DNA from: Roseinatronobacter domitianus
GTDB taxonomy: Bacteria; Pseudomonadota; Alphaproteobacteria; Rhodobacterales; Rhodobacteraceae
Reading direction: 5' to 3'
Length of the DNA: 64,000 nt
Assembly (NCBI RefSeq): GCF_023336755.1
Contig: NZ_JALZWP010000012.1
Span: 1-64,000 of the forward strand
The notes under the pieces were generated by a model. That model did no database searches. It worked only from the letters and a program-made list of their open reading frames with translations, and was not told the origin of the DNA. Of the stretch, positions 2,269 to 16,128 are shown piece by piece. Position numbers and translations under genes: made by a program. Numbering within the stretch: the stretch's first letter is position 1; each line of letters begins with the position of its first letter.

Positions 2269-2548
2269 GTTCACGCACGACGCCGAGCGGGACCTGATCA
2301 ACATCTTCCTCTACGGGATCGAACATTTCGGCCCGGTTCAGGCCGAGAGGTACGCGAAGACGCTCAACGCCAAGATCGAGATGGCGGGAGAGCACCCGGA
2401 TTTCGGAGCGGATTACGGTTTCGTCATCAGTGGTGTTCGTCGGTACGAGGCTGTGTCCCACGCCGTGTACTATCGTTCCACTCAAACAGGTATTCTCGTG
2501 CTACGCGTCCTGCACGGCCGGATGGATCCGGCCCGCCATCTCGCGTGA
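2255..2548 (+). CDS. parE: ParE/RelE-superfamily toxin
   Basis: This 97-residue protein starts with VTKIEFTHDAERDL and continues with IFLYGIEHFG, YAKTLNAKIE and a closing VLRVLHGRMDP, the typical ParE arrangement. The start is a GTG at 2255 inside the end of the antitoxin gene; longer ATG starts only add a basic non-ParE extension read from parD. ParE toxins usually poison DNA gyrase, whereas RelE relatives cut mRNA, and sequence alone favours ParE. Its probable role is addiction of the replicon. Confidence 0.9.
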   Translation: MTKIEFTHDAERDLINIFLYGIEHFGPVQAERYAKTLNAKIEMAGEHPDFGADYGFVISGVRRYEAVSHAVYYRSTQTGILVLRVLHGRMDPARHLA

Positions 2549-3389: not shown

Positions 3390-4043
3390 TTATACCGTAT
3401 CCAGTCCCCGAAACAGCTCGGCCAACGCCGCCTGGCTCGGTGCACGTTTCATGATCGCGAACCGCGAAAGATGGGGGAGCCCGATCCAGGTTCCGTCTGA
3501 AAACCTCCCCCTAGACGCCGTATAATTACCCCATCCAACAGGATATGATTTGACATCGTTCACGCCGAGAAGCTGTGCAACCTCCCGGTTGGCGGTTGCC
3601 CCCATGGACACAACAAGGGAGGGGCGGGCTGTCTTCAGGATTTCCGCCCACAGTGTTCTTCCGAACTCGATTGCACCGGGTGCGTTTTCGAGGGTGTCCT
3701 CACTTGGTGAACGAAAGGGGACCAGATTCCCTGCCAGAACCTCCTCGGGGGGTACGTTGAGGCGCCGGAACAGCTCCAGGACCTGATCCTGGAGCTGGCT
3801 GCTGGCTCCCCAGTTCTCGACCTCTTTCCGGTAAGCTGAGCCCCGTTCGCTCGAAAACACGCCGTGATCAGGATCGATGGTCGTCCCGCCGGGGTTCAGC
3901 CCGACAAAGGCCACCCGAGCCCCATCCAGAACACGACACGGGCTGTACAGCAGACGCCAGCCAAGCGGCCTACCGCTTGGGTTCTGGCGTAAGCGGGTCT
4001 CGTAGGCGAGCTGAATAGCGTTTTCGATTTCTGCGGGTCTCAT
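3390..4043 (-). CDS. uracil-DNA glycosylase-fold protein (MUG/TDG-like)
   Basis: This 217-residue protein has VAFVGLNPGG at about residues 44-53, matching the GINPG/GLNPG active-site loop of mismatch-specific uracil glycosylases, and GLPHLSRF near residue 187, a plausible version of the HPS loop. Known relatives excise uracil or thymine from mismatched DNA; activity here is inferred. Its ATG overlaps the stop of the PIN-domain gene by four bases, making it the third gene of an antitoxin-PIN-UDG operon. Why a glycosylase should travel with a toxin pair is unclear; damage repair after nuclease action is one option. Confidence 0.55.
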   Translation of the reverse strand: MRPAEIENAIQLAYETRLRQNPSGRPLGWRLLYSPCRVLDGARVAFVGLNPGGTTIDPDHGVFSSERGSAYRKEVENWGASSQLQDQVLELFRRLNVPPEEVLAGNLVPFRSPSEDTLENAPGAIEFGRTLWAEILKTARPSLVVSMGATANREVAQLLGVNDVKSYPVGWGNYTASRGRFSDGTWIGLPHLSRFAIMKRAPSQAALAELFRGLDTV

Positions 4044-4618
4044 AGGGCCTCGATGTCACGCCTCAGAGTCGCGGCCAGCTTGGGAAGTCCCGACTTCGTC
4101 AGATCGAACAGAAACTCCGAAGCCGTCATCGGCGGGGTCCGGTATCGCTTTCGGACCCGGGAAAGCGCCCGCGCAGCCTCAGACGGGAACAGCTCGTAGG
4201 TGCTGACCAGCATGTCGTCCGCTCCGAGCGTCTCGATCCCGTATTCTTCTAAGACGGCCGCGGGGAAATCGTGGCGGTTCTCCGTGACGATGACCTGCGC
4301 CGATGCCCGGATCGCGGCGGCGAGAACGTGCCGGTCCCCGGGGTCTGGGAGCTCGAGGCTGGGCATGATCGGCTGGTAACCGGTCACGAAGCACTCGTCG
4401 AACACCTCTCGGATCATGGCCTCCTGCTGACGCACGCTGGTCTCCAGGCGTGGTTTCAGGCGGATCAGGTTCCGGGTCCATTCATCGAGGATGTCGTCCG
4501 TGAACCGGGCCCGGAAAAGCCCTTCGTGTGCGAAGGTCAGCAGCACATCCCGGACCCGGAAGGGGAACAGGACGTTCGCATCCAGAAGCACCACGAAAGG
4601 GTTCGCGACGATGCTCAT
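4040..4618 (-). CDS. PIN-domain ribonuclease (VapC-like toxin)
   Basis: This 192-residue protein opens with FVVLLDANVLFPF, the first acidic strand of a PIN domain. It continues with DDILDEWTRNL, then LPDPGDRHVLAAAI and QVIVTENRHDFP, giving the usual four acidic residues. PIN toxins cut RNA with Mg. It is longer than classical VapC (about 130 residues) and has an extra C-terminal helical region. The start overlaps the preceding antitoxin-like gene by four bases (ATGA), so the two are made in fixed ratio. Confidence 0.8.
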   Translation of the reverse strand: MSIVANPFVVLLDANVLFPFRVRDVLLTFAHEGLFRARFTDDILDEWTRNLIRLKPRLETSVRQQEAMIREVFDECFVTGYQPIMPSLELPDPGDRHVLAAAIRASAQVIVTENRHDFPAAVLEEYGIETLGADDMLVSTYELFPSEAARALSRVRKRYRTPPMTASEFLFDLTKSGLPKLAATLRRDIEAL

Positions 4619-5067
4619 CCCTGATCGAATTCCTGTCCGAGACGGGCGAGGTCATCGAGAACATCTTCTCGGCGGCGCCTCTTGCGGTCCCGATACGCCA
4701 TCAGGGCGTCGAGCGGGACACGTCTGTGTTTCCCGACCTCTTCGAAGTCGATCTCACCCTCCTTAAGCAGCTTCGTCAGATGTGGCCGGGAGACGTTCAG
4801 CATGTCGGCCGCCTGCTGTGTCGTCAGCATCGTCCCTACGGGTACGAGCGTGACCATGTTGCCGCTGGCGACATGTCCCAGTAGCTCGATGATCAGATGC
4901 CCCACGGCCGGCGCGATCCGGACCGGTGATCCGTTCTCTCCCGTGATCCGCAGCCCGCCATCCAGCTCCATCGCCACCGCAATGGCGGTGGCGGCGTGGG
5001 CAGCGCTGTCGATTTCATCTGGTGTCGGTGGACGCTCCATCAGCCCACCATGGTCAATCTTGGACAT
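4615..5067 (-). CDS. antitoxin-like protein with excisionase-type HTH
   Basis: This 150-residue protein has an N-terminal half of unknown type. From about residue 80 comes a clear excisionase/MerR-like helix-turn-helix: LTTQQAADMLNVSRPHLTKLL, followed by FEEVGKHRRVPLDALM and an arginine-rich tail. The ATG at 5067 is preceded by GGAGGGAGA at optimal spacing; a start eight codons upstream is less likely. It is the first gene of the operon with the PIN protein and probably acts as antitoxin and autorepressor. The GTAAC-rich stretch upstream (5286-5556) is a possible target. Confidence 0.75.
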   Translation of the reverse strand: MSKIDHGGLMERPPTPDEIDSAAHAATAIAVAMELDGGLRITGENGSPVRIAPAVGHLIIELLGHVASGNMVTLVPVGTMLTTQQAADMLNVSRPHLTKLLKEGEIDFEEVGKHRRVPLDALMAYRDRKRRRREDVLDDLARLGQEFDQG

Positions 5068-5285
5068 GGGTCTCCCTCCGGTTTTCACCACATATGGAAC
5101 GTCACGCGCACCATCACAACAGAAATATCCGAAATATGAGAAATAAACGAAAAAGATTCACGTGATCCTGTCCGTCACCACCCTGATCAAGACCGTTTTC
5201 ATCGAAGAGAAACTAGATCACCGGCCGGGGGCGCGGCAGTTAACTCTCGTGTGAGTGGTCATTTTGACGGCTTGAAACGCCTTAG

Positions 5286-5556
5286 CGCGTTACAAACCGT
5301 GCCCGTTACATCCCCCTGTAACGGGAAAAGATCAATTAAATCAACGATGTTTCAATGTTACACCGTTTCAGGGATGAATATGTCTCTCTGCGCGCGCGTG
5401 TGCGTGTGTGTGTAGGCGTATATACCTTTATCTTTTTCTTTGTAACAAACATACACACATATAGAAAAATACCTTTATTCTTATAGGTTTAGGGGTGTTA
5501 CAAGGCCTGTAACATCCCCGTAACGGGGCTGTAACAGGACCTGTTTTGTAACGCGA
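5286..5556. repeat. cluster of GTAAC/GTTAC words with nested hairpins
   Basis: About ten GTAAC or GTTAC words occur in 270 bases, many paired. Examples are CCCGTTACA/TGTAACGGG (5302-5325, 9-base perfect stem), GGGGTGTTAC...GTAACATCCCC (5492-5519) and the palindrome CCCCGTAACGGGG (5516-5528). A tract of alternating GC/GT lies inside at about 5389-5416. No gene is convincing between 5068 and 5863. It may be an operator or protein-loading array for the flanking divergent genes. Confidence 0.55.
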
Positions 5557-5596
5557 TGGCCCCGGTCCGGCACAGACGCTAACCGGCGTCGTCGCC

Positions 5597-5914
5597 GATT
5601 TGCGAAAAATGTTCCTGAGGTCGCGGCCCCAGCCCATACTGATCCGTCTGTCATGCAGCATACAGAGGGGCGCGGGAGCGCCCGCCACTGTTGACGAATG
5701 CCCGCGACGGTCTGCGAAAACCTAACTATATAAATCAATGGTTTATACGATATCCTGGATGGATGCAGACGCCGTGATGTGATAGAAGGCCTTATGGAAT
5801 CCTGGGAGGGGGACATGATCTTCACGCAGAACACCAGACGGTAGCGCTGACCCGTCACCACCGATGAAACCCGCATCTCCACTACACCAAAGACCTGATC
5901 TGGCTCGGATCGCC
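5597..5914 (+). repeat. diverged direct repeat, copy A
   Basis: Alignable over about 318 bases with 6529-6850. Best conserved are GATTTGCGAAAAA at the left edge, the block ATATAAATCAATGGTTTA, GATGTGATAGAAG, and GGTAGCG followed by CTGACCCGTC. The right end runs into the first codons of the 5864-6382 gene. A 29-codon frame (5755-5844, beginning CTG) matches the one in copy B. Confidence 0.75.
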
Positions 5915-6382
5915 GAGGGGGACGTGCCGCTGAGCGCGTCTGAGAGGGATGCTCTGGGCCGTGTGGGCGTCGACGCGTCAGATGCCGTGTCCGACGCGGA
6001 TTTCTACAGGTCGGGTCCCGTGCTGGAGGGCATGACCCGACAGGCCCTCATGACGGCCGATGCCGTCCCGCTTGCCGAAGCGGCGCGGCGGATGGGGGTG
6101 AGCGATGCCCGCCTCCGACAGCGTATCGCCGCCGGCTCCCTGATGGCCGTACATCGCCCTCACGGGCGCGGCTGGCTCATCCCGGCGTTCCAGCTGACGG
6201 AGGCCGGAGAGGTCCCGCATCTCGGCCGCGTTCTGCAGGCAACGGGACGTCCGGTTTCCGCCCAAGCCATGGACCGGTTCTTCCGAACCCCCCGTGAGGA
6301 TCTTGAAGGGGTGTCGCCCCGGGAGTGGCTGATCGCGGGTGGTGATCCTGCGATCATAGAGAGCATCCTCAGCGGTCTTTGA
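5864..6382 (+). CDS. HTH DNA-binding protein with MbcA/ParS-like C-terminus
   Basis: This 172-residue protein has a central helix-turn-helix (VPLAEAARRMGVSDARLRQRI, then HGRGWLIPAFQL) like excisionase-type regulators. Its C-terminal segment is EGVSPREWLIAGGDPAIIES, resembling the toxin-binding end of Xre/MbcA/ParS antitoxins. No RES-type toxin gene follows, so it may be an orphan regulator of the repeats around it. Its start lies inside repeat copy A and no strong ribosome site is visible. The equivalent part of copy B lacks the ATG. Confidence 0.6.
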   Translation: MKPASPLHQRPDLARIAEGDVPLSASERDALGRVGVDASDAVSDADFYRSGPVLEGMTRQALMTADAVPLAEAARRMGVSDARLRQRIAAGSLMAVHRPHGRGWLIPAFQLTEAGEVPHLGRVLQATGRPVSAQAMDRFFRTPREDLEGVSPREWLIAGGDPAIIESILSGL

Positions 6383-6464
6383 CCGAGGCCCTCCAACTCA
6401 TGGACCATCTGCCAAGATCCCCCGGGGCGCCACCTGAGCTGCTGCCGGTTTCGTGGACTGGGGG

Positions 6465-6527
6465 TTAAGCTAGCATAGCGCGGGCCTCGAACTCCATGGG
6501 ACTTAGATAGCCCAGCTCCGGCGCCCC
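6465..6527 (-). pseudogene. IS3-family transposase 3' remnant
   Basis: Read on the minus strand the frame gives PELGYLSPMEFEARAMLA followed by a stop, the usual C-terminal end of the IS3-family OrfB integrase core. The bases beyond the stop (TTAACCCCCAGTCCACGAAA) resemble an IS3 element end. Only about 20 codons survive, cut off exactly where repeat copy B begins at 6529. Confidence 0.65.
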
Positions 6528-6528
6528 A

Positions 6529-6850
6529 GATTTGCGAAAAACGTTGCTGAAGTCGCGAGTCCCAGAACACGCTGCTCGGCCGCAACCCAGCATACTAGGG
6601 GTGCGGGAGGCTCGTCCGCGATTGGCGAATACCGACGACGCCTTGCGAAAAAACTAATCAATATAAATCAATGGTTTAGTCGATTTTATGAATGGATATC
6701 GATACCATGATGTGATAGAAGCCTTATGGAGCCTCTGGGAGGCGGACATGGCATTCACACTACACAACAGATGGTAGCGCCGGACGGCTGACCCGTCGCC
6801 ACTTCCCGATCCCGCATCTCAACCTCAGACCTGATCCGGTTCGGATCGGG
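6529..6850 (+). repeat. diverged direct repeat, copy B
   Basis: Second copy of the 318-base repeat at 5597-5914, just upstream of the AAA+/M41 cassette. It keeps the TTGCGAAAAA words, the identical block ATATAAATCAATGGTTTA and the 29-codon frame, but the start codon of the HTH gene found in copy A is lost. It probably contains the promoter of the downstream operon. Confidence 0.75.
6688..6777 (+). other. candidate 29-codon small ORF in repeat copy B
   Basis: The ATG frame shares about half of its residues with the equally long frame 5755-5844 in copy A; the shared core is DVIE.L...WE.DM.FT. Both end with TAG at the same relative place. No ribosome site is obvious. It may be a leader peptide or decayed coding sequence. 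Confidence 0.3.
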
Positions 6851-6941
6851 ACGACCTCCTGCTGCTCGAAAGACCCGCCGATGACCCTGATCGTTTCCTC
6901 CTGCGCGCCGGTCCGGTCCCCACTCGCTGAGGGAGGTCGCG

Positions 6942-8192
6942 ATGACTGACGCCCGCCAGCCCGGATTCGACGAGGCGATCGATTATCTCGTGAAACGGAC
7001 AAGGCCGGACCCCCGCCCTACCGGGTTCGACGAGGACGACCTTGTTGACGCGTCCGACGATCCGGGGATCGTCCCACGCAAACCGTATCCGGACGAGATC
7101 CTGGACGCGCTGGCGATCCTGCGCCTCTGTCGCGCCGTCGAGGACACTGGAGATCAACCGTTGAGCCCTGCGCGTGGCCTACTGACGACCATCGTCGCGC
7201 GTACCTGGGAAGACCGGAAGCGGCTCGCTAAGGTCATCCCGGAGCTCTCGTCGGCGCAGAGCGCTGTCACAATCCTTACAGAAGAACCACCGGACCGGAA
7301 CCGCAACGCCAGCGACTTCATCAAGAAGCTCGAAGGGATGCTCGAGCTTGGCCGCCGCACAATCGCGATTCTATCGACCCCGGAGGGACTATCCGCGCCG
7401 CTGGCTATTCTGGAAACCGCCCGGGTCATCGTGCCGCCGCTCAATGCGCGCATGCTTACCCTGATGCTCGAATATCTGTACCCCGGCGCCGATATTCAGG
7501 TCCCGCTGACCGACCTCCAGATCGCTAGGCTTCCGCCGCTGGCGTTCGGGCCAGCTTTCGTCTCTGAAGACGTGGAGAACGCGATCGCCCATCTGCGCCA
7601 TCTCGGGATGCGCCCTGTCGCAACGACGACCGGACCCACGCTCGACGACGTCCATGGCCAGCCCGAAGCTGTCGGGGTGCTCCGGCAGGTCGTACGCGAC
7701 CTTGAGGCTTGGCGGGCCGGGAAGATCAGGTGGGCCGAGGTGACCAGATCGTTCCTCTTGTACGGGCCGCCCGGGACGGGGAAGACGCTACTCGCCCACG
7801 CTCTGGCTGGATCGGCCGGTATCGGTTTCGTGAAAACCTCGTATAGCGATTGCCAGCGGGCGGGCCACCAAGGCGACATGCTGCGCGAGCTGAACGCGGC
7901 GGCGGACCGCGCGATCACCGGGGCTCCCGCGGCGTTTTTCGTCGATGAAATCGACAGTTTTTACGCGCGGGACATGTCGAGTAATGGATATGTGATAGGG
8001 GTTGTTAACGGTTTGCTCACCTTGCTCGACCGGCTTTCAGCGACGGAGGGTGTTGTTCTGATCGCCGCCACAAACGACCCGAAAAGGGTCGATCCGGCGG
8101 TCATCCGGTCTGGACGATTTGATCGTCACATCCGGGTCAGCGCGCCCAATCGGGCCGGAATCCGCGCCATGCTGGAGGCGGCCCTGAGATGA
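6942..8192 (+). CDS. AAA+ ATPase, FtsH-type ATPase half
   Basis: This 416-residue protein has about 260 N-terminal residues of unknown type and no transmembrane segment. A canonical AAA module follows: Walker A GPPGTGKT near residue 276, Walker B FFVDEIDSF near 332, sensor AATNDP near 376, and arginine finger RSGRFDRH near 388. The end, SAPNRAGIRAMLEAAL, stops where FtsH would enter its lid. The next gene supplies the missing lid and M41 peptidase, with an ATGA overlap. The start is well supported by GAGGGAGGT. The pair therefore looks like a soluble FtsH split into two chains, expected to unfold substrates for the partner peptidase. Confidence 0.8.
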   Translation: MTDARQPGFDEAIDYLVKRTRPDPRPTGFDEDDLVDASDDPGIVPRKPYPDEILDALAILRLCRAVEDTGDQPLSPARGLLTTIVARTWEDRKRLAKVIPELSSAQSAVTILTEEPPDRNRNASDFIKKLEGMLELGRRTIAILSTPEGLSAPLAILETARVIVPPLNARMLTLMLEYLYPGADIQVPLTDLQIARLPPLAFGPAFVSEDVENAIAHLRHLGMRPVATTTGPTLDDVHGQPEAVGVLRQVVRDLEAWRAGKIRWAEVTRSFLLYGPPGTGKTLLAHALAGSAGIGFVKTSYSDCQRAGHQGDMLRELNAAADRAITGAPAAFFVDEIDSFYARDMSSNGYVIGVVNGLLTLLDRLSATEGVVLIAATNDPKRVDPAVIRSGRFDRHIRVSAPNRAGIRAMLEAALR

Positions 8193-8902
8193 GTGTGAGT
8201 GACACAGACCTCGATCGTTTGGCGGACCAACTCCTCGGCCTCTCCGGGGCGGAGGTGGCGGCCGTTATCCGTGACGCGCGCACCCGAGCCCGGGCGTCTG
8301 AGCGTGAGCTGACGCTCACGGACCTCCAGGCCGCAGCTGACGCGGTCCAGCCGACTCCGGACCAAGATCTGCTCTGGCGCGTTTGCGTCCATGAAGCCGG
8401 ACATGTGGTTGCCGGGCACCTGCTGAGACTACCGCCAGCGACGTCGGCCCGAGTCACGCCGCGCGGAGGCGAGGTTCTACGCGCCCACCTGCCGCACATG
8501 ACGGACCGGACCGTTCGTGACGTGATGTGCGCTGTACTCGCGGGGCGTGCCGCTGAAGCGCTCTTTTTCGGGGACATCTCGTCAGGTGGTGGTGAGGGTA
8601 TGGGCAGTGATCTCGCCCAGGCGACCGAGCTCGCCACTAGGTTCGAGGCGGGGTTCGGATTCGGCGAGACCCTTGCTTGGATTCCGCCGGACACCCCTGT
8701 TCCTTTGCTCCCGGAAAACCTCCGGACGCGGGTCGAAGCCGCGCTTCAGGACGCGAACCGGACCGTTCACGGGCTGCTGGAGGGGCAGCAGGACCTCATT
8801 CGGCGCGTCGCGACCAGCCTTTCAGAGCGGCGCGAGCTGGACGCCGACGAGATCGCAGCGCTGTTCACCGGATCCGGTGAACCATGCGGGGAGAGCGCGT
8901 GA
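8189..8902 (+). CDS. M41 (FtsH-type) zinc metallopeptidase as a separate protein
   Basis: This 237-residue protein begins with an AAA lid-like region (LSGAEVAAVIRDARTRA, as in FtsH GADLANL). It then has the zinc-binding HEAGH at residues 68-72 and GSDLAQATELA with Asp141 as the third ligand, in the FtsH order. There is no ATPase domain; that is the upstream gene, whose stop overlaps this start. It should form a hexamer with the ATPase and degrade unfolded proteins in the cytoplasm. Separate M41 and AAA chains are unusual, since FtsH is normally one membrane-anchored chain. Confidence 0.8.
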   Translation: MSVSDTDLDRLADQLLGLSGAEVAAVIRDARTRARASERELTLTDLQAAADAVQPTPDQDLLWRVCVHEAGHVVAGHLLRLPPATSARVTPRGGEVLRAHLPHMTDRTVRDVMCAVLAGRAAEALFFGDISSGGGEGMGSDLAQATELATRFEAGFGFGETLAWIPPDTPVPLLPENLRTRVEAALQDANRTVHGLLEGQQDLIRRVATSLSERRELDADEIAALFTGSGEPCGESA

Positions 8903-9408
8903 TGTGGGAAGAAAACATGGACCCTAGGTGCCCACTTCTGGATGAGCTGATCACAGTCCGCGCGCTGCTCGGGGAGGATCCGGGGGAGTGGGGTTCGGTC
9001 AAGCTGACGCTCAGCCCGTGCCTCCGTCTGTTGTTCGCCGGCTATGCGCAGGACCAGGCCGACCAAGGCCGGGGAGCGGCCCGGCTCATAGACCTCATCT
9101 CGCACCTGGAACACCTCAGCACCGCGCAGCCCAGGGCAGAGGAGCTTCGGGATGCCCCTCTTCTGGATGAGTGGTCTGCTGGTGTTGGGGGTGACGGCTG
9201 CGCGCGGCTTTTCGGCCGGGTTACCGGACATCCTTTGCTACGCGAAAGGGCACGGATCTACACTTCACCCTACCTCCAAGTCGATCCACAGTCGGGGTGG
9301 GCCCGGACCTGGAGCCGGTTCTATCGGCTCGGTCGGCATGATCGGCGGTTCCTCGCGGAGATGATCATGGACGGTGCCGTTGGGCCCACAGAACCGATCA
9401 AGCTTTGA
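8902..9408 (+). CDS. hypothetical protein of the AAA/M41 cassette
   Basis: This 168-residue protein has no recognised family. It is mostly helical-looking, with WARTWSRFYRLGRHDRRFLAEM near the C-terminus. The ATG at 8902 overlaps the peptidase stop (TGATG) and has GGGGAGA upstream; an in-frame ATG six codons earlier is possible. The tight coupling argues for a shared function with the protease pair, for example adaptor, sensor or protected partner. Confidence 0.65.
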   Translation: MWEENMDPRCPLLDELITVRALLGEDPGEWGSVKLTLSPCLRLLFAGYAQDQADQGRGAARLIDLISHLEHLSTAQPRAEELRDAPLLDEWSAGVGGDGCARLFGRVTGHPLLRERARIYTSPYLQVDPQSGWARTWSRFYRLGRHDRRFLAEMIMDGAVGPTEPIKL

Positions 9409-9410
9409 CA

Positions 9411-10229
9411 ATGGGGGCTGCATATGTCGTTGGCGCTGATGAGTTGCAAAAAATCCGGGCTCACCTCAAGAAAATTCTGCCTATACGAATACTACTCCCA
9501 GACCCAATCAACGAAAACGACATTATGACCGTTTCAGGGATCTACGCCTTTCTTAAGCGAGGCCGGGTATGGGCGCACCTATACCTCGGAAAGTCCTTCG
9601 AGCGCCTTGGTCCCCGTGCCAGCGAACAGCTTCATCTGCGCCAGTGGGCGACCCACCTTCTGTTGTTTCCCCTGCCAGGCCTCCGACCCGAAACGCTTAC
9701 CGTGATTGAAAAACGACTTCTTCGGATATGTGCGAGGAAGTTTTTTTGGGCGTATTTGGATAACGAACGTGATCTTTCCGCGCCACACCCAGACCCATTC
9801 CTGAAAGGGGGAATATATCCGGACCTGGATGATCTCGTTTTAAAGATCGCTGGCACTGTCCTTACAGGGCTCGAGCCCTCGTGGGAGCGCCGCAAGAAAC
9901 TGTCCCCAACGCACACTCTCAGAACGCCGAACGGCGACACTTACGGTATGGCTTCACGACAAGGTGGATGGACGTATCTGCTGCCCGGGTCCCGATTACC
10001 ATCTCGTTTTCCGAACTACCGGGCGATCAAAAAGGACCCTGCCGCGCTTGAAAGACTCGAGGGATTCTACCGCCGCGGTGAGATCGCCTGGCGTCCGAGA
10101 AGAGGAAGTCGGCAGGCGGGGTTTGTTGTCACGGAACCGGTCCTGTTCAAGAAGATAAGCTCAGCCGCACGGATGCTCTATGTGGGCGAGAAGGTTACCG
10201 AAGAGTGGGAGCTCATAACGCCCAAGTAG
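9411..10229 (+). CDS. GIY-YIG-like nuclease with DUF4357-like C-terminus
   Basis: This 272-residue protein contains SGIYAFL followed by HLYLGKSFERLGPR and, further on, IEKRLLRICAR. This is a plausible GIY...YLG, Arg and Glu layout of GIY-YIG nucleases. The C-terminal part has the repeated motif ending SSAARMLYVG...WELI, like DUF4357 domains often found behind such nucleases. The ATG at 9411 is two bases after the previous stop; a TTG at 9405 would overlap it. It would cut DNA. Its place as last gene of the AAA/M41 cassette suggests a nuclease effector. The assignment rests on short motifs. Confidence 0.5.
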   Translation: MGAAYVVGADELQKIRAHLKKILPIRILLPDPINENDIMTVSGIYAFLKRGRVWAHLYLGKSFERLGPRASEQLHLRQWATHLLLFPLPGLRPETLTVIEKRLLRICARKFFWAYLDNERDLSAPHPDPFLKGGIYPDLDDLVLKIAGTVLTGLEPSWERRKKLSPTHTLRTPNGDTYGMASRQGGWTYLLPGSRLPSRFPNYRAIKKDPAALERLEGFYRRGEIAWRPRRGSRQAGFVVTEPVLFKKISSAARMLYVGEKVTEEWELITPK

Positions 10230-10268
10230 GACACATGAAAATGGGACAATCGGATGCCAGAATGACAG

Positions 10269-10640
10269 ATGTTCTCAGGGATACCCGTCCCGTACGCGTT
10301 ATGCAGTAATTTGAGCGTCGACTATGTCGCCGCGCTGGCCCGGTTCCCGGAAATCAGCCCCGCGTTCCGGGTCCTCTCATGTTTTGTCGGCTGCATGAAG
10401 CCGGACCGCCGCATCTATGAGCTGGTGCTTGAGGCCGCAGGCGTACCAGCGGCCCGCATCCTGTTCGTCGGCGACACTCCAGCCGCTGATCTAGAGGGAC
10501 CAATCCGCGCTGGCATGCGGGCTGTTCATATCGATGCGTTTCTGAATTCCTTCGCTGAGAGAGACAGGCGCGATGACTTTGGGGACGCTTTCCGTGCGGC
10601 ACGGGGCACAGTATCTCGCGATTTGGACATAGAAAGCTGA
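10269..10640 (+). pseudogene. HAD-superfamily hydrolase, N-terminally truncated
   Basis: The frame encodes the later HAD motifs: ALCSN (motif II), CMKPDRRIYE (motif III Lys) and ILFVGDTPAADLEG (motif IV), then AGMRAVHID. Motif I, the DxD nucleophile, is absent and is not found in the 39 bases after the preceding gene. The gene was probably cut when the upstream cassette arrived. It is unlikely to be active. Confidence 0.7.
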
Positions 10641-10801: not shown

Positions 10802-11224
10802 TTATAGGCTGGATGAACGTTTCGACACACCCCTGTTGGGGCGAGCGAGTTTAGCCTCAAGCCGATCGATCTTGTTCAAGCTGTCAGACAAGAGTGTGTG
10901 GAGATGGGCGATTTCCTCGTCCGCGTAATACGCGCTGAGAGCCGCCTCGGTCTGCATCTCACGTATCCGCTCAGCAACCCGATCTACGATTTGGGACCAG
11001 AGGCGTACCCCGAACGCGCCGGCTTCTTCTTTCACGTCTTCCGGCATATCGAGCGCCACTTCGGCAAGCAGATGAGCGCGTTGCGCATGCCAGGTCTGAA
11101 GTGCTTTCCGGATATCACGTTTTGAGCCACGGCCACGGCGGTCGAGGATAGCGTCGTAAGTCAGCCGTTCGCCGGCGGCGTGCATATCGGCGCAAAGGGC
11201 GAGGAGCTCGTCATGTACAGCCAA
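10802..11224 (-). CDS. KfrA-like plasmid DNA-binding protein
   Basis: This 140-residue protein has near its N-terminus AAGERLTYDAILDRRGRGSK followed by DIRKALQTWHAQR. This corresponds to the KfrA N-terminal DNA-binding domain (compare GxxPTxxxVRxxLGxGSxxTI...LxxW). The rest is helical and ends in a short coiled-coil-like stretch (LHTLLSDSLNKIDRLEAKL), shorter than classical KfrA. The chosen start is TTG at 11224, with a strong AAGGAG six bases upstream; a TTG at 11266 is the alternative. The ribosome site lies inside an ATGGTAC dyad, so binding would block translation and transcription: autorepression. Confidence 0.75.
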   Translation of the reverse strand: MAVHDELLALCADMHAAGERLTYDAILDRRGRGSKRDIRKALQTWHAQRAHLLAEVALDMPEDVKEEAGAFGVRLWSQIVDRVAERIREMQTEAALSAYYADEEIAHLHTLLSDSLNKIDRLEAKLARPNRGVSKRSSSL

Positions 11225-11252
11225 TTGGTACTCCTTAATTTTGAAGTACCAT
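11225..11252. promoter_or_regulatory. KfrA-type operator 2, covering the ribosome site
   Basis: TTGGTAC-N14-GTACCAT ends at the base before the chosen TTG start of the KfrA-like gene and contains its AAGGAG (minus strand). It is a strong candidate autoregulatory site. Confidence 0.65.
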
Positions 11253-11280
11253 TCCGTTTTTCGCAAGCTCGGTCAAGCGG

Positions 11281-11307
11281 ATGGTACTCCATCAGAAACC
11301 GTACCAT
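11281..11307. promoter_or_regulatory. KfrA-type operator 3
   Basis: ATGGTAC-N13-GTACCAT, about 60 bases upstream of the KfrA-like start. It has the same arms as operators 1 and 2 with one base less spacer. Confidence 0.65.
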
Positions 11308-11359
11308 GTCCGTAAACGCGACGTCGAGGACCTATGCGGCGAGGCTTGACGGCTGCGTA

Positions 11360-11395
11360 CAGATACGGAAAAAGTTAAGAACGGTCAGGGACGAA
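11360..11395 (+). repeat. left 36-bp terminal inverted repeat
   Basis: It begins CAGATACGGAAAAAGTTAAG and ends CAGGGACGAA. Its exact reverse complement is at 17589-17624. The inner word GTTAARAACGG recurs next to the right copy (about 17560), as expected for recombinase half-sites. Confidence 0.9.
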
Positions 11396-11470
11396 ATCGA
11401 GGTTGTCGCTCCGGCGTCAGGCTTGGCTGATTGCCGTCCGGCCGTGGAACGGGCCGGCTGAACGCATGGC

Positions 11471-12229
11471 TTAGAAGTCTTCGTCGAAGTCGTGGTCATA
11501 TCCCCTGAGATCGCGAACCTTCCTCGCGAGGATCTCTATTTCTTCCTGATGTTCTCTGACCCTGTTACGTAGGCCCTCAAGTTCTGGCTCATGCTGTGCT
11601 GTCGCGGCATCCCAGCCTGCCTTCCATGCCTGATGGAATAAGGTTGAGACCTTCTTCTGGAGAGCTTGAGGTGGTCCTGATGTTTCATCCTGCCCTGACG
11701 CGTTGTCTCTAGGCTGTTCTGGGGCGTCGGCCCCAACATCATCCGGAGCTTTGGGTGATCCGGAAGTTTTTTTGCGCGTCTCCCATGCCACCTGCCGAGG
11801 ACTCTTCATCTCAGGGCGGCTTTCGAGGGCTTCGTCGTATCGTTTTTTCAGATCCACATAGGGGACCGGGCTTGGTCCTACAGCGTCTGCTAAGGCCTTC
11901 AGACCTTCCTGTGCATCAATTCGATACAGTCGTTCTGCAACCTCGATCGAAGAGATTTTCGGCGCTTCTGCGCCGCCCTGTTCGAGATCTCCTGGAGCAT
12001 GTGTATGTAGGAACGCATATGCGCGTCTGACTTTGTAGAGGTGTCCCGCCGAGATGGGCGCACCAAGTTCCGTCAGCTTATCCCGGAGCACATCTTGCCA
12101 GGGCCGTCCGGATGCATCGCCCCGGGAGTAAGCTTCCAGCTCAAACAAGAGTCGACCGATTGTCACCCAGTTCTTGGCCTGCTCCTGAGTTAAGTTACGA
12201 AGGGAGTGCTCCGGCGGTGCTGGCAGCAT
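11471..12229 (-). CDS. hypothetical protein with C-terminal coiled coil
   Basis: This 252-residue protein has an N-terminal helical domain (LTQEQAKNWVTIGRLLFELE, then GAPISAGHLYKVRRAYAFL), a charged low-complexity middle (about 150-200) and a heptad-like C-terminus (LEGLRNRVREHQEEIEILAR). No family is recognised. The ATG at 12229 has AAGAGGA upstream; an ATG 21 codons earlier is less likely. It is transcribed away from the recombinase genes and is probably cargo or a regulator of the element. Confidence 0.6.
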   Translation of the reverse strand: MLPAPPEHSLRNLTQEQAKNWVTIGRLLFELEAYSRGDASGRPWQDVLRDKLTELGAPISAGHLYKVRRAYAFLHTHAPGDLEQGGAEAPKISSIEVAERLYRIDAQEGLKALADAVGPSPVPYVDLKKRYDEALESRPEMKSPRQVAWETRKKTSGSPKAPDDVGADAPEQPRDNASGQDETSGPPQALQKKVSTLFHQAWKAGWDAATAQHEPELEGLRNRVREHQEEIEILARKVRDLRGYDHDFDEDF

Positions 12230-12254
12230 GGTGCAGTCCTCTTTTTTGGATGAG

Positions 12255-12263
12255 TTATCCACA
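12255..12263. promoter_or_regulatory. isolated DnaA box
   Basis: TTATCCACA, a perfect consensus, lies just upstream of the leftward hypothetical gene. A single site may be chance. No iterons are nearby. Confidence 0.3.
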
Positions 12264-12478
12264 TACAGCTTCGGTGACGTCCCGACAATCAAAACCTTGT
12301 GGCGCGCGTTGTTTGCGGGCTCGCGTGGTGAAGAAAAAGTGAGAGATGGGAAGAATGGATACTTGATCTAATGCTAATTTAAGTTTAGATGAGTCATCCA
12401 AGATAGACTTGGAGAGCTCAACGGCGCCCTGCAGGGTCGCTGTGATGCAGCCACCTAGACACAAGAAGGAGAAGGCCT

Positions 12479-13384
12479 TTGAATGTTATCGCCGACAGCA
12501 TGGCTGTCATCACCACTTTGTACCAAACTGGTGCTCTCGGGATCGGAGAAATGCGTGCGACGCTTGAGCTTCGCATCGAAGAAGACGGGACTGTGACCCT
12601 GGTTGCGAGAGACCAGCATCATACTGAGCTCAGCACGTTCAGCGAAGCACACGGTCTCACCTTGACGGCTGGAACCCTGCTTTGCCGGGACCAGGCCGTC
12701 ATCGCCGATATCGACAAGGTCTCTGACCTGGCCAGGCAGCTCGAGCCGCTCGTTGCGCGTGTTCTGCCTGGGCGGGACAGCTACTGGGACGGCTCGAACT
12801 GGATCGGCCGTCTTGAAGAGGACGCATGGGCTGCGTGGACCGAAATCACTGCCTTCTTCGAAGAACTCGAGGCCGAGCGGTGGACCACTGACGCGGCCGT
12901 CTGGGATGCGGAGGATTACATTTCCTATGGGCATGATGTCACCTCCCAGACGACGGATGCGGAGTTGAACCAGCTCGCGGCGGAATATGTCGCGGAAGCC
13001 GAAAGAGAAAATATTTACTTTCTCTACGGGTCGCATGGCGAGGGGCCCGAGGCCATGTGTGAAATTCTCTTCGAGATGCGTAAAGCGCTCAGGGCTGACG
13101 ACGAGGAGGACTGGGGCGAGGAGTATCAGGACCTCAAGGGTGTCATCAGTAACGCCGCACAGGCTTTCCTTGCCTCTGATGATGATGCTGAAAGTGGCGC
13201 TGTCGCCTTTCATGTGGGGAAGTGCCACGACGAAGTCTGGCAGGCCGTATTCACTCGTGGCCCTTCCTTGGAACTGGGTATGACCCGCATCGCGACTGGG
13301 GCGCAGGCTGAGGAGTTTCTCCGCGACCCTTCCACCGCGGCCCACATCGTTTTCAACTGCTGGGACGAAGACTGGACCGAATAA
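12479..13384 (+). CDS. acidic hypothetical protein (cargo of the 6.3-kb element)
   Basis: This 301-residue, strongly acidic protein (many DEE/EED runs, such as ADDEEDWGEEYQD) is rich in Trp, with no signal peptide or membrane segment. No family is recognised. The start is a TTG at 12479 preceded by AAGGAG seven bases upstream; an ATG seven codons later is possible. Acidity of this degree is seen in DNA-mimic and anti-restriction proteins, but nothing here proves such a role. The next gene is similar in character. Confidence 0.6.
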   Translation: MNVIADSMAVITTLYQTGALGIGEMRATLELRIEEDGTVTLVARDQHHTELSTFSEAHGLTLTAGTLLCRDQAVIADIDKVSDLARQLEPLVARVLPGRDSYWDGSNWIGRLEEDAWAAWTEITAFFEELEAERWTTDAAVWDAEDYISYGHDVTSQTTDAELNQLAAEYVAEAERENIYFLYGSHGEGPEAMCEILFEMRKALRADDEEDWGEEYQDLKGVISNAAQAFLASDDDAESGAVAFHVGKCHDEVWQAVFTRGPSLELGMTRIATGAQAEEFLRDPSTAAHIVFNCWDEDWTE

Positions 13385-13475
13385 CCACCCGAAGCATTCG
13401 AGGGTGCGGTTGGGTTCTGAGCTACCCATCCTCGAGGGGGTGAACCTTCAACTTAAACACAAAACGGAACGGAAT

Positions 13476-13880
13476 ATGGCTCTCAGGATCGAAAAAGTCG
13501 TGGCGGATCACATCGATGAGTACGCAACCCGCGAGGAATTCCACGAGGATTATGCGGGAGTTGCTATGGATGGGCTCGACGACCCGACCCACTACGACGC
13601 TGTGCTTATCAGACGCAATGCGGAGAATGGCCTCGTCACCTTCGTCGCGACACATGGCTTCTGGCGTGAAATACCTGAAGAGGGAGAGGCTGAGGTTGAG
13701 AAGCTCAGAGTCTACGAGGTTGAGTTTTCCCACTGGACGGACGAACCGCTTGGCGAACTTGCACTTTTGGCCAGTTTTGCGGCTCTGGACGCCGAGCACG
13801 GCTACGATCGCGCGATGTTCGGCGGCAGTCTTGTCAAGGATTATGAGACAGCCCTGAACGCGTGGAAGAAGGATTTGTGA
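13476..13880 (+). CDS. small acidic hypothetical protein
   Basis: This 134-residue acidic protein starts MALRIEKVVADHIDEY and has alternating strands (LVTFVATHGFW, KLRVYEVEFSHW) in its middle. It lies 92 bases after the 12479-13384 gene in the same direction and shares its Glu/Asp/Trp-rich composition, so the two are probably co-transcribed. A GTG start 24 codons upstream is possible but has no better ribosome site. No family is recognised. Confidence 0.55.
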   Translation: MALRIEKVVADHIDEYATREEFHEDYAGVAMDGLDDPTHYDAVLIRRNAENGLVTFVATHGFWREIPEEGEAEVEKLRVYEVEFSHWTDEPLGELALLASFAALDAEHGYDRAMFGGSLVKDYETALNAWKKDL

Positions 13881-13985
13881 AAAACTATTTCCTAACAGAT
13901 ACTTATATGTGGAAAACCCCAGATCTTCGGATGATTTTTTCGCCCACCTAGACTACTCTAAAGGAAGGAGACACGGAGTAGGAAC

Positions 13986-14210
13986 ATGACTGAATACCAC
14001 AGTATCGAGGCGATCGCAGATCGCTTCAAGCGCAACCCGCGTACGATCCGCGACTGGATCAACCACGGCTGCAAGACCCCGGACGGCACGATCCGGCTCC
14101 AGGCCGCAAAGCTGGGAAAATCATGGGTCGTGAAGCGCGACTGGCTCGAGTTCTTCGAATTCCAGATCAAGCCGCGCCCGGTGTTGGAAGAACTGGACCT
14201 CGATGAATAA
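13986..14210 (+). CDS. small HTH protein (excisionase-like)
   Basis: This 74-residue protein has EAIADRFKRNPRTIRDWINHG followed by GKSWVVKRDWLEFF, a winged-helix/excisionase pattern. The ATG follows AAGGAAGGAG-type sequence. Its stop overlaps the first recombinase start by eight bases, so it is coupled to it and most likely serves as directionality factor or repressor for the recombinases. Confidence 0.75.
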   Translation: MTEYHSIEAIADRFKRNPRTIRDWINHGCKTPDGTIRLQAAKLGKSWVVKRDWLEFFEFQIKPRPVLEELDLDE

Positions 14211-16128
14211 GCGCGTTGTGACCACCCAGACGGAGACCTATCAGGCCGTCGCAGACCGCCTGACCACGGCTTGGCCTGCGGGGACCCCGGAGGCCAAGAA
14301 GGGCGCGCGGATCGCCCGCCGTATTCTCTGGGTGTGCCGTCAGGCAAACTGGGTTCCTGAGACGACCGTGGCCTCGCACCAGGCGGTGACGAAATTTTTT
14401 GATACGCACACGCCCGCCACGTTCGGGGTGACGCCCGGCACCTACGCGGTTTACCGCTCCGAGGTCCTTTCCGTTCTGAAACCCCAACCGGTCCGGAAGG
14501 GGCGGTACATCCTCCAGATGACGGGTGTTTACCGCGAGGTCCATGACCGGACTGTGGATTCCGGCATGCCCGAGGCGTTCCGGTGGCGCTGCTCGCCTCT
14601 GCTCTGGTATCTCCACGATCACGGGATCGCGCCGCCTGATATCAGCGTTGACACGCTGATGGAGTACTATCAGTTCAGTCTTGACGTGGAACAGCTGGCG
14701 GAGGAGCGAGCCCGCCGCCGCGCACAAGACGCCGCCAAGTATATCTCTTTGATGGCGAGCGACCCGGACTTCGGAGAGTTTGGGTTCTGCCCGGTGGAGA
14801 TCACGTTTCCCAACAGGTCGATCAAGTATAATGTCCCGCGCGACATCGCCGACGCCCTCCTCAAGGAATACGACAACCGCGTGGTCCTCTGGGCACGGGG
14901 CGAGGTGTCCAACAAGGGCGAGACGTGGGCTGAGTACATCGCGCGCCTTGATGCGGCCGAGACACCAGCCTCGACCTCTGACAAGAAGCGGGCCTGGAAG
15001 GCCCGTCAGGCATACCAGGATACCATGGCGAAGGGAGAACAGGTTTCCCGGGCGCCGGCAAAGGGCTTCATGCCGGAGAGCCGCAGATGGAAGCCGGCGA
15101 CGGTCCGGAGCCGCCGTGACCACTGCGCAACCTGCGCGAAGGTGATGTACGAGGCGGGACAGTTTCACATCGAAACGGTCGAAGAGCTGACGGACCCCGA
15201 AATCGTCGAAGCCATCGCGAAACGGCTGGATGCGCGCAAGCCCAAAGATAACCCCCAGTCGTCCTACACCAGCGGTATCCTCTCGTTTATTTCAACCCTG
15301 GCGAAGGATTTCGTGCAACGCCCCCCGGACGATCTGGAGAAGATCGGAAAGGTCAAAACGAAGTACGGGAAGAAGCACGAAGGTATCGCGTTTAAGAACA
15401 AGGAAATACTACGAAAGTTTACGGATGCACGTATTCAGGCACTGATCGATATGCCTGACAGGATTACAGCGCATCTGAACCGGGAGGTGGTGCGCCGTCG
15501 CGAAGCGTATCGGCAGGAGCATGGGGTTCTTCCTCCTCCCGTGGCGGTGTTCGACCAGTCCTTGATCAAGCAGGTCATGCTCGCGCTTGCGGCGCACATC
15601 ATGCTGACGCGGGCCCCACGGCGCTCGAATCTGGCGGGCCTGCGCCTTGAGTGGCTCCGGTGGCGGGACGGGTGCGCGACCCTGGAAGTCCCGGCACCGT
15701 TCGTCAAGTCACGCAAGGTGCAGGATCCCCCGCTGATCATTCCCCTTGATGTCAAGGTGAGCAAACTTCTGGACCAGTACCTAAAGAGCTTGAGGCCAAA
15801 GATGCTCCATCCGGATGATGCCCAGAACCCGTTCCTCTTCCCCTCGCCGCCTCACGCCGGAAAGCAGCGGTTCGGCGGGTTCTATGTCGGCTTGCCGGAT
15901 AGACTTGTGGATCAGGTCCATGAACGGGTCGGGGTGCGCATCCACCCACATCTCTGGCGCCACCTGCTTGGGTGGATCTGGCTTAAGGAAGACCCGGACA
16001 AGTTGCCCGCCGTGCAGAAGCTTCTTGGGCACAAGAGCATCGAAACGACGATCAAATATTACGCGGACATCGACGAGAGCGTGGTCCTGAAGAAGTGGCT
16101 GGAGTATCTGGATGGCAAGAAAACGTAA
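14203..16128 (+). CDS. large tyrosine recombinase
   Basis: This 641-residue protein keeps all catalytic landmarks in the C-terminal third: Arg in RAPRRSNLAGL (about 471-480), Lys in FVKSRK (about 501), HPHLWRH (about 582), LLGHKS (about 607) and the nucleophile in KYYADID (about 619). The N-terminal 450 residues, including a long DNA-binding region, are much larger than in XerC/D. It overlaps the HTH gene upstream and a second recombinase downstream (17 bases). This three-gene overlap is like transposons moved by paired recombinases (Tn554 TnpA/TnpB type). It should act on the 36-bp terminal repeats. Confidence 0.85.
   Translation: MNKRVVTTQTETYQAVADRLTTAWPAGTPEAKKGARIARRILWVCRQANWVPETTVASHQAVTKFFDTHTPATFGVTPGTYAVYRSEVLSVLKPQPVRKGRYILQMTGVYREVHDRTVDSGMPEAFRWRCSPLLWYLHDHGIAPPDISVDTLMEYYQFSLDVEQLAEERARRRAQDAAKYISLMASDPDFGEFGFCPVEITFPNRSIKYNVPRDIADALLKEYDNRVVLWARGEVSNKGETWAEYIARLDAAETPASTSDKKRAWKARQAYQDTMAKGEQVSRAPAKGFMPESRRWKPATVRSRRDHCATCAKVMYEAGQFHIETVEELTDPEIVEAIAKRLDARKPKDNPQSSYTSGILSFISTLAKDFVQRPPDDLEKIGKVKTKYGKKHEGIAFKNKEILRKFTDARIQALIDMPDRITAHLNREVVRRREAYRQEHGVLPPPVAVFDQSLIKQVMLALAAHIMLTRAPRRSNLAGLRLEWLRWRDGCATLEVPAPFVKSRKVQDPPLIIPLDVKVSKLLDQYLKSLRPKMLHPDDAQNPFLFPSPPHAGKQRFGGFYVGLPDRLVDQVHERVGVRIHPHLWRHLLGWIWLKEDPDKLPAVQKLLGHKSIETTIKYYADIDESVVLKKWLEYLDGKKT

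What the first reader, a model, noticed from the sequence alone, without database searches (positions are those of the whole stretch)
6942..10229. Split FtsH-type ATPase and peptidase fused into an operon with a GIY-YIG nuclease
A soluble AAA+ protein ends where FtsH would enter its lid, and the next gene (ATGA overlap) starts with the lid and carries HEAGH plus the third Asp ligand. An unknown protein and a GIY-YIG-like nuclease follow with overlaps or a 2-base gap. There is no membrane anchor. A proteolysis pair coupled to a DNA nuclease in a mobile region looks like an uncharacterised defence or conflict cassette; the function is inferred.
Basis: partly seen in the sequence, partly recalled or inferred. 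Interest (0 to 1): 0.8.

Follow-up and report, generated by a model that had tools for sequence, protein, structure and literature searches.

The report
Split soluble FtsH-like protease with nuclease
Bacteria related to Rhodobacter carry a little-studied gene cassette that pairs a soluble, ATP-driven zinc protease with a DNA-cutting enzyme, and this genome has an odd version in which the protease is cut into two genes and the probable nuclease is of a different type; it looks like a conflict or defence cassette, but no function has been tested.

Summary
Window 6942-10229 encodes AAA, lid+M41 (ATGA overlap), DUF6634 and a very divergent GIY-YIG/DUF4357-like protein. AAA and zinc residues are intact; no membrane anchor is evident. 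The exact four-gene set was found nowhere else.

The protease belongs to a soluble M41 family, normally one fused gene, in 51 of 292 sampled genomes of the order. It usually sits in a conserved unit: divergent RHH regulator, small protein X, nuclease, AAA-M41. In 64 scorable loci the slot upstream holds a GIY-YIG-type gene in 41 and a PD-(D/E)XK-type gene in 10; the type changes about 7 times on the protease tree. Two genomes carry near-identical copies in unrelated flanks, so it seems to move as a unit.

The window copy is a derived variant: protease split (a fission that also arose separately in rhizobia), no X, RHH or zinc-ribbon nuclease, DUF6634 and another probable nuclease gained, and an HTH gene that shares a duplicated upstream region with the operon.

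Best reading: a mobile conflict cassette in which a soluble AAA zinc protease controls a co-encoded nuclease. The anatomy is well supported except the last gene, whose GIY-YIG call rests on one relative. Defence and direction of control are inferred.

The parts
5560..5930 (+). First copy of a ~370-bp diverged direct repeat upstream of and into the HTH gene; holds TATAAATCAATGGTTTA, here part of an imperfect palindrome, and a 9-codon ORF at 5815
   Evidence: 255 of 359 ungapped positions identical to 6492-6866; only these two copies in the own genome, apart from a 28-nt chance-level hit at E 0.31
5864..6382 (+). Helix-turn-helix protein, probable regulator of the cassette (inferred from the shared upstream region)
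   Evidence: HTH_17 0.003 and Rv2175c_wHTH 1.9e-4, both under their cut-offs; repeat shared with the AAA upstream region
6492..6866 (+). Second copy of the repeat, upstream of the AAA gene; possible shared operator/promoter
   Evidence: no sigma-70-type promoter match in 5400-10500
6942..8192 (+). AAA subunit: probable degenerate AAA-like N-domain (no Walker A) followed by an intact AAA core; ends where the lid would begin
   Evidence: Pfam AAA 3.5e-30; model positions 1-188; Walker A/B, sensor 1 and Arg fingers present; fold matches
8189..8902 (+). Lid + M41 zinc peptidase subunit (HEAGH and third Asp ligand), ATGA overlap with the AAA gene
   Evidence: Pfam M41 1.1e-12; FtsH structures 1.8e-15; model positions 192-418
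8902..9408 (+). DUF6634 protein (alternative start 8884), 1-nt overlap with the M41 stop
   Evidence: Pfam PF20339 2.2e-17
9411..10229 (+). Probable, very divergent GIY-YIG nuclease with DUF4357-like C-terminus (alternative TTG start 9405); GC3 0.59 against 0.71-0.74 for the three genes before it, so probably acquired separately
   Evidence: full-length relative (BLASTP 5e-12, 24% identity) which links it to GIY-YIG/DUF4357 proteins; motif residues G45/Y47, Y60/G62, R71, E102, N120 shared by both; composition

Best explanation
A derived, rearranged member of a mobile accessory cassette family of Rhodobacterales in which a soluble AAA+ zinc protease is genetically coupled to a nuclease. Most likely mechanism: the AAA subunit (probable degenerate first AAA domain plus an active AAA core) and the lid-M41 subunit assemble in trans into a hexameric cytosolic protease. 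Under repression by a small DNA-binding protein (RHH in the canonical unit, the HTH protein here) it is made together with a nuclease. A trigger such as incoming phage or plasmid DNA makes the protease remove or remodel a small partner (X, or DUF6634 here) and so frees the nuclease to cut DNA. Shown: the genes, intact protease residues, recurrent nuclease coupling, nuclease exchange, near-identical units in unrelated flanks. Inferred: assembly in trans, nuclease activity, the target, the direction of control, and the anti-element role.
For: 51 of 292 genomes of the order have a match to the soluble family stronger than 1e-80 (hand count of the table). Of 70 loci studied, 64 have two or more upstream genes; 51 of these have a nuclease-type gene one or two places upstream on the same strand: 41 GIY-YIG type, 10 PD-(D/E)XK type; X (any of four sequence clusters in that place) accompanies 44 of the 51 and RHH (three clusters) 38 of the 51. 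X and GIY distances follow the protease's (Mantel r 0.72 for 31 loci and 0.59 for 36, 0 of 2000 permutations as high), while nuclease type changes 7 times over 46 tips (shuffled mean 9.1; 24 of 500 shuffles as low): the slot is kept, the enzyme is swapped. Of 79 aligned members, Walker A Lys 78/78, Walker B Asp 78/79 and Glu 79/79, sensor-1 Asn 79/79, both Arg fingers 79/79, the two zinc His, the catalytic Glu and the zinc Asp 78/78 each. Near-identical units: 4,285 bp at 99.7% twice in G338, 4,657 bp at 99.98% twice in G381, unrelated flanks. The split pair's sister (72% identical in the AAA core, support 0.94) is split at the same junction.
Against: No function was measured. The sister split pair in G416 has no recognised nuclease or DUF6634 beside it. 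13 of 64 loci, the window included, have neither nuclease type upstream. The canonical nuclease is upstream; the window's is downstream, of different composition, and its GIY-YIG identity rests on one relative, so it may be a passenger or another enzyme. Pfam support for the canonical GIY-YIG type is thin (7 and 4 of 39 members). Flanking genes include housekeeping genes, and defence models are scattered (no control set). X and DUF6634 are not detectably related. The FtsH pore-loop aromatic (recalled) is His in 64 of 78 members, so unfoldase activity is not certain.
Confidence: 0.42

Rival explanations
1. Toxin-antitoxin-like maintenance module: the nuclease is the toxin, X (or DUF6634) the labile inhibitor, the protease the dedicated degrader of the inhibitor, the RHH protein the autorepressor. 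It stabilises the plasmid or island rather than fighting phages.
For: Divergent RHH gene in 38 of 51 nuclease-bearing units (Pfam RHH_1 in 27 of 39 proteins scanned); plasmid records with a relative of the M41 gene: 58, of which at least two of the 40 listed are annotated as FtsH; serine recombinase within four genes downstream in 17 of 70 loci; the window cassette lies near ParDE and PIN/HTH pairs and a KfrA-like gene.
Against: RHH is encoded divergently rather than in a two-gene toxin operon; a protease of some 700 aa is unusual for addiction (judgement); some loci have no nuclease beside them.
Confidence: 0.2
2. The unit is a selfish mobile element: the nuclease acts like a homing endonuclease that copies the unit into new sites, and the protease supports or regulates this.
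For: Near-identical units with unrelated flanks and no transposase gene called inside; nuclease families that include homing enzymes (GIY-YIG; group I intron-associated PD-(D/E)XK by record annotation); a TTATCCACA-like site concentrated within 300 bp after the AAA-M41 stop (21 hits in 68 loci against 0-5 in each of 29 other bins, near-duplicate loci included; exact site in 10 of 60 loci without near-duplicates, 0.36 expected).
Against: No clear terminal repeats or target duplication and no empty site for the one junction searched. One G381 copy lies beside a Y2 (IS91-like) transposase, which can move neighbours (recalled); in that copy the site lies 80 bp beyond the end of the shared block and in the other copy it is missing, so the borders may not be element ends. 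The window has no such site in the cassette.
Confidence: 0.15
3. The protease has an independent regulatory or quality-control role in islands and plasmids; neighbours, including the window's DUF6634 and last gene, are mere cargo.
For: The G416 split pair and several other copies stand without a recognised nuclease; several rhizobial copies have metallophosphoesterases or unknown genes beside them instead.
Against: 51 of 64 loci have a nuclease-type gene in the same slot, with correlated divergence and exchange, too regular for cargo.
Confidence: 0.23

Closest known systems
FtsH / M41 AAA+ metalloproteases
   Same: AAA core, lid, M41 domain, HEAGH and third Asp ligand; best sequence matches of the M41 gene among solved structures are FtsH
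   Different: No membrane anchor evident, probable degenerate AAA-like N-domain, split into two genes here; 106.2 and 56.9 bits against the FtsH equivalog cut-off of 600; present in addition to the genome's own FtsH on contig C7
IetAS (AAA ATPase IetA with a protease IetS; partner identity recalled, papers seen only as a listing)
   Same: AAA + protease pairing proposed for phage defence; IetA is the best PADLOC model for the AAA subunit (4.3e-18)
   Different: Match covers the AAA core only (residues 266-415); protease is M41 zinc type, not the recalled subtilisin-like type; nuclease and RHH/X partners
SNIPE (membrane-bound GIY-YIG defence nuclease, PMC13190303, passages seen)
   Same: GIY-YIG nuclease whose activity must be kept off host DNA
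   Different: SNIPE is one protein held off host DNA by a membrane anchor and carries DUF4041; in the passages seen FtsH appears only as a labelling fusion, not as a partner
GIY-YIG/DUF4357 proteins of Rhodobacterales
   Same: Same domain order and motifs as the family of the window's last gene
   Different: The window protein alone does not reach the profile and sits with a protease

Membership tests
FtsH (ATP-dependent membrane zinc protease) | AAA core with Walker A/B, sensor 1 and Arg fingers | tested here: met
FtsH (ATP-dependent membrane zinc protease) | M41 domain with HExxH and third Asp ligand | tested here: met
FtsH (ATP-dependent membrane zinc protease) | N-terminal membrane anchor | tested here: not met
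   best hydropathy 1.42/1.43 against 2.35 for own FtsH; simple hydropathy scan only
FtsH (ATP-dependent membrane zinc protease) | NCBIfam FtsH equivalog cut-off (600 bits) | tested here: not met
   106.2 and 56.9 bits for the two genes
Soluble AAA-M41 family of Rhodobacterales (defined here) | Score on profile A3 beyond FtsH and membership of its clade | tested here: met
   267.9 + 225.9 bits for the two genes, FtsH-level matches up to about 258; nested in the clade
Canonical unit RHH-X-nuclease-AAA-M41 | Divergent RHH, X and nuclease directly upstream | tested here: not met
   window has none of them upstream
GIY-YIG nuclease (superfamily) | GIY...YIG, Arg, Glu, Asn in order (motif recalled) | tested here: met
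   GIY, YLG, R71, E102, N120, all shared with its one relative
GIY-YIG nuclease (superfamily) | Match of the protein itself to a GIY-YIG profile | tested here: not met
   no Pfam or NCBIfam hit; alone 12.6 against the GIY-YIG/DUF4357 alignment, within its shuffles (at most 21.7)
GIY-YIG nuclease (superfamily) | Match through homologues | tested here: met
   BLASTP 5e-12 to the Sulfitobacter relative; pair profile 54.6, 50 shuffles at most 19.4; relative alone 34.7
GIY-YIG nuclease (superfamily) | GIY-YIG fold | tested here: inconclusive
   single-sequence model, mean pLDDT 37
DUF6634 | Pfam PF20339 over gathering score | tested here: met
   63.7 bits, cut-off 27
IetAS defence system | IetA model over the whole protein plus IetS protease | tested here: not met
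   IetA matches residues 266-415 only; no IetS hit among the nine proteins scanned
Anti-phage defence system (any) | Protection against phage or plasmid | not testable with these tools
   needs an experiment

The most novel reading that the evidence does not exclude
A new class of protease-gated nuclease cassettes: a soluble tandem-AAA M41 protease with an interchangeable nuclease slot (GIY-YIG, PD-(D/E)XK, possibly metallophosphoesterase in rhizobia), moving as a compact unit, and in two lineages with the protease cut at the AAA/lid boundary so that the motor and the peptidase can be supplied separately.
Probability: 0.35. Interest if true: 0.85.

Novelty: new variant of a known kind. Interest (0 to 1): 0.65.

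Why it matters
FtsH-type proteases are usually thought of as membrane housekeeping enzymes. Here a soluble M41 branch is an accessory, mobile gene in 51 of 292 sampled genomes of the order, tied to DNA-cutting enzymes that are swapped around it. If the protease gates the nuclease, this is a new control principle for bacterial conflict systems. The two independent fissions at the AAA/lid boundary also give a natural test of whether an AAA+ protease can work with its lid and peptidase on a separate chain. I found no paper that describes the association in searches for DUF6634, FtsH + GIY-YIG + defense (56), M41/AAA/anti-phage/soluble FtsH (57), T5orf172/MUG113/GIY-YIG/anti-phage (80), IetAS and related terms (81, 110), ATP-dependent Zn protease + GIY-YIG (107) and FtsH/AAA protease/GIY-YIG nuclease/Rhodobacter/mobile genetic element (108). 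I saw these as listings and read passages of one paper only; most subscription papers are not in that library.

Tried and rejected
A sequencing frameshift as the cause of the split: rejected as main reading because the overlap is ATGA with a ribosome-binding-like site, the sister pair in G416 is split at the same junction, and five rhizobial pairs are split at or near the same boundary in a separate clade.

Conserved four-gene cassette: rejected. The last gene was found in the own genome only, among 248 and 337 genomes; no match in phages, none confirmed in viral contigs; one distant relative on a Sulfitobacter plasmid.

GIY-YIG call for the last gene: my first comparison used ten proteins, one of them (L255) a wrong ORF; without it the pair profile scores 54.6.

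Phage origin: 25 viral-contig loci matched the AAA region; the two best by E-value were 39-40% identical, as for ordinary AAA proteins (L046-L053); they were not analysed further.

Defence islands: PADLOC and Pfam on 139 flanking proteins (one per cluster, 180 aa or longer, from 200 candidates; the window's last gene left out of the 140). No PADLOC family was matched by more than 2 (methyltransferase models and mad3 among those with 2) and no Pfam family by more than 4 (phage integrase). The output does not tell how many of the 139 hit some model, and no control set was run, so neither enrichment nor depletion is claimed.

X related to DUF6634: no. Window's last gene related to the canonical zinc-ribbon GIY-YIG: 17% probability, in the right region. 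Sequence profile of the N-domain against the AAA core: weak (4% probability), so the degenerate-AAA reading rests on a model (mean pLDDT 69.6, five sequences) and on fold matches, of which 3 of the 50 rows listed span both parts.

Empty site for one G338 junction: 54 genomes of its genus searched with joined flanks; no match spanned the junction. Terminal repeats or target duplications: none clear.

L199 upstream gene looks CoiA-like by recall; Pfam gave only DUF7830 at 2.4e-4, so it is not counted as a nuclease.

Limits: gene calls in the loci come from my own codon-score script, not a standard caller. Some slot genes are short or in pieces (L169, L181). 15 of the 72 rows stronger than 1e-80 were not among the 70 (one, the second G381 copy, was fetched later). 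The genome search scores only the best candidates per genome, so copies may be missed.
Full report
What is there. Four ORFs lie at the stated coordinates on the + strand. The first is an AAA protein (Pfam AAA 3.5e-30), the second has a lid (22.4 bits, below the 27.2 cut-off) and M41 domain (1.1e-12), the third is DUF6634 (2.2e-17), the fourth has no Pfam family at a meaningful level. The first two overlap by ATGA, with GGAGG 10 nt before the second start (sequence). Scored against a profile of the soluble family, the first gene ends at model position 188 and the second starts at 192, which is the AAA-core/lid boundary. Walker A and B, sensor 1, both Arg fingers, HEAGH and the third Asp ligand are present. 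No membrane segment is evident in a hydropathy scan.

The fourth gene. It is missed by curated profiles and by sequence search of solved structures. Its only relative found, on a Sulfitobacter plasmid, is homologous over the full length (24% identity, 5e-12 in a pairwise comparison) and shares GIY/GLY, YLG, Arg, Glu and Asn in the GIY-YIG order. The two-sequence profile aligns over 217 columns to nine Rhodobacterales GIY-YIG/DUF4357 proteins with score 54.6 and probability 93% (96% in global mode), against at most 19.4 for 50 column-shuffled controls; five other alignments gave 31.4 or less, the highest being the canonical GIY-YIG family itself. Against this, the window protein alone scores 12.6, within its shuffles (at most 21.7), and only the relative alone stands out (34.7 against 21.5; two short HMMER matches, one at the GIY-YIG motif and one in the DUF4357 part). 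I read it as a probable, very divergent GIY-YIG nuclease with a DUF4357-like tail, a call that rests on one relative. Its third-position GC, 0.59 against 0.71-0.74, suggests separate acquisition.

The family. The own genome has an ordinary FtsH (contig C7) and a second, fused soluble homologue (C33) besides this split one. Over 292 genomes of the order, 72 matches in 51 genomes are stronger than 1e-80 (275.9 bits or more, my hand count), while FtsH-level matches reach about 258 bits; split or cut members (the window at 270.1, G319:C5 at a contig end, G416:C23) fall between or among these. Three same-genus genomes in that sample showed at most an FtsH-level match. In a class sample, 13 of 190 genomes had a match at 1e-75; besides the own genome six of them score above 320 bits, and these were not examined. 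On plasmids, 58 records hold a relative of the M41 gene, at least two of the 40 listed being annotated as FtsH.

The canonical unit. In 64 loci with at least two genes upstream, 41 have a GIY-YIG type gene and 10 a PD-(D/E)XK type gene one or two places upstream; 13 have neither, the window included. X is present in 44 of the 51 and a divergent RHH gene in 38 of the 51, where X means any of four and RHH any of three sequence clusters in that place. Assignments: RHH_1 in 27 of 39; PDDEXK_5 in 6 of 11; for the GIY-YIG type, MUG113 in 7 and T5orf172 in 4 of 39 at E 0.01, invariant Tyr, Lys-x-Gly, Arg and Glu and conserved zinc-ribbon Cys, and the record annotation 'GIY-YIG nuclease family protein'. 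X has no consistent Pfam family. Six near-duplicate loci left out, nuclease type changes 7 times over 46 tips of the protease tree (shuffled mean 9.1; 24 of 500 shuffles as low; 8 over 47 if the unclassified L199 gene is added), while X and GIY distances track protease distances (Mantel r 0.72 for 31 loci and 0.59 for 36; 0 of 2000 permutations as high). So the slot is kept and the enzyme in it is exchanged.

Mobility. G338 carries the unit twice, 4,285 bp at 99.7% identity, in unrelated flanks, the identity starting about 70 bp outside RHH and ending 18-32 bp after the AAA-M41 stop. G381 carries X-nuclease-AAA-M41 twice, 4,657 bp at 99.98%, beside two serine recombinases only 44% identical. 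No transposase gene was called inside. How it moves is open: no clear terminal repeats or empty site were found, one G381 copy has a Y2 (IS91-like) transposase next to it, and 17 of 70 loci have a serine recombinase within four genes downstream.

The split. The window pair is sister to a split pair in G416 (72% and 54% identical in AAA core and M41; support 0.94), within a clade (support 0.84) whose other members (L042, L007, L005, L006, L179) are fused. Five rhizobial split pairs form a separate clade (support 1.0) (annotated as separate ATP-binding and Zn protease genes; one reaches the start of its record). Fission at the AAA/lid boundary thus happened at least twice on this tree.

The second flavour. 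DUF6634 lies near AAA-M41 in 6 of 70 loci and in a Bosea plasmid record; the Falsirhodobacter record has the contig length of one of the six and is not counted again. Of 30 DUF6634 loci of the order, 10 have a metallophosphoesterase within about 1.5 kb and 4 (window included) have AAA-M41. Several rhizobial AAA-M41 genes sit beside metallophosphoesterases, and so does the only relative of the window's last gene. AAA-M41, DUF6634, phosphoesterase and this GIY-YIG-like family are therefore linked by neighbourhood, in few loci each.

Regulation in the window. A 370-bp diverged repeat (255 of 359 identical) precedes both the HTH gene at 5864 and the AAA gene; no other copy was found in the genome. 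Both copies hold TATAAATCAATGGTTTA, an imperfect palindrome in the first copy. I infer that the HTH protein regulates both, in the place of the RHH protein.

Mechanism and verdict. The best reading is a mobile conflict cassette: a two-chain soluble AAA+ zinc protease that controls a co-encoded nuclease. Anatomy, coupling and near-identical moved units are shown; nuclease activity, target, trigger, direction of control and defence are inferred. Against it stand the nuclease-free sister in G416, the unusual place and uncertain identity of the window's last gene, and flanks in which no defence family recurs. The exact window arrangement may be a one-off; the family it belongs to is not.

Noticed in passing
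window 5560-5930 and 6492-6866: Diverged 370-bp direct repeat before the HTH gene and before the AAA gene, with a shared 17-nt AT-rich core and a 9-codon ORF in each (5815 MIFTQNTRR, 6748 MAFTLHNRW); only two copies found in the genome.
   Followed up: partly
0-300 bp after the AAA-M41 stop in 68 oriented loci: TTATCCACA (DnaA-box-like) with at most one mismatch: 21 hits in this bin against 0-5 in each of 29 other bins; exact motif in 12 of 69 loci where 0.6 was expected, in 10 of 60 without near-duplicates, 0.36 expected. In G338 it lies at the border of the duplicated unit. Unexplained; absent from the window cassette.
   Followed up: partly
L159/L162 (G338) and L265/L266 (G381): Near-identical intragenomic copies of the unit in unrelated flanks.
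   Followed up: yes
G000:C33:3158-5752 (L152): Own genome also has a fused soluble AAA-M41 with extended X (324 aa), PD-(D/E)XK-type gene (PDDEXK_5 3.2e-4), RHH-type gene and a serine recombinase.
   Followed up: yes
L009, L237, L238, L242, L244: Rhizobial plasmid AAA-M41 genes are also split, in a clade of their own; their neighbours gave no hit to my GIY-YIG, X, DUF6634 or phosphoesterase profiles (L009 not).
   Followed up: partly
L012-L041: DUF6634 genes often lie beside a metallophosphoesterase (10 of 30 loci); no paper of the library holds the word DUF6634.
   Followed up: partly
window 2002-2548, 3390-5091: ParD/ParE pair, a UDG-like protein and a PIN/HTH pair upstream of the cassette.
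   Followed up: no
window 10269-10640: HAD-like hydrolase that matches only the C-terminal part of the family, probably a remnant.
   Followed up: no
window 10802-17497: KfrA-like plasmid gene and a large integrase-family protein, and an excisionase-like ORF at 13986 by eye, so the region looks plasmid- or island-borne.
   Followed up: no
soluble AAA family, model column 79: Pore-loop position that is Phe in FtsH (recalled) is His in 64 of 78 members.
   Followed up: no
L153 (G284:C1): Copy of the unit with no X or nuclease called but AAA-M41 kept, 97.8% identical to the plasmid copy over 2.4 kb.
   Followed up: no
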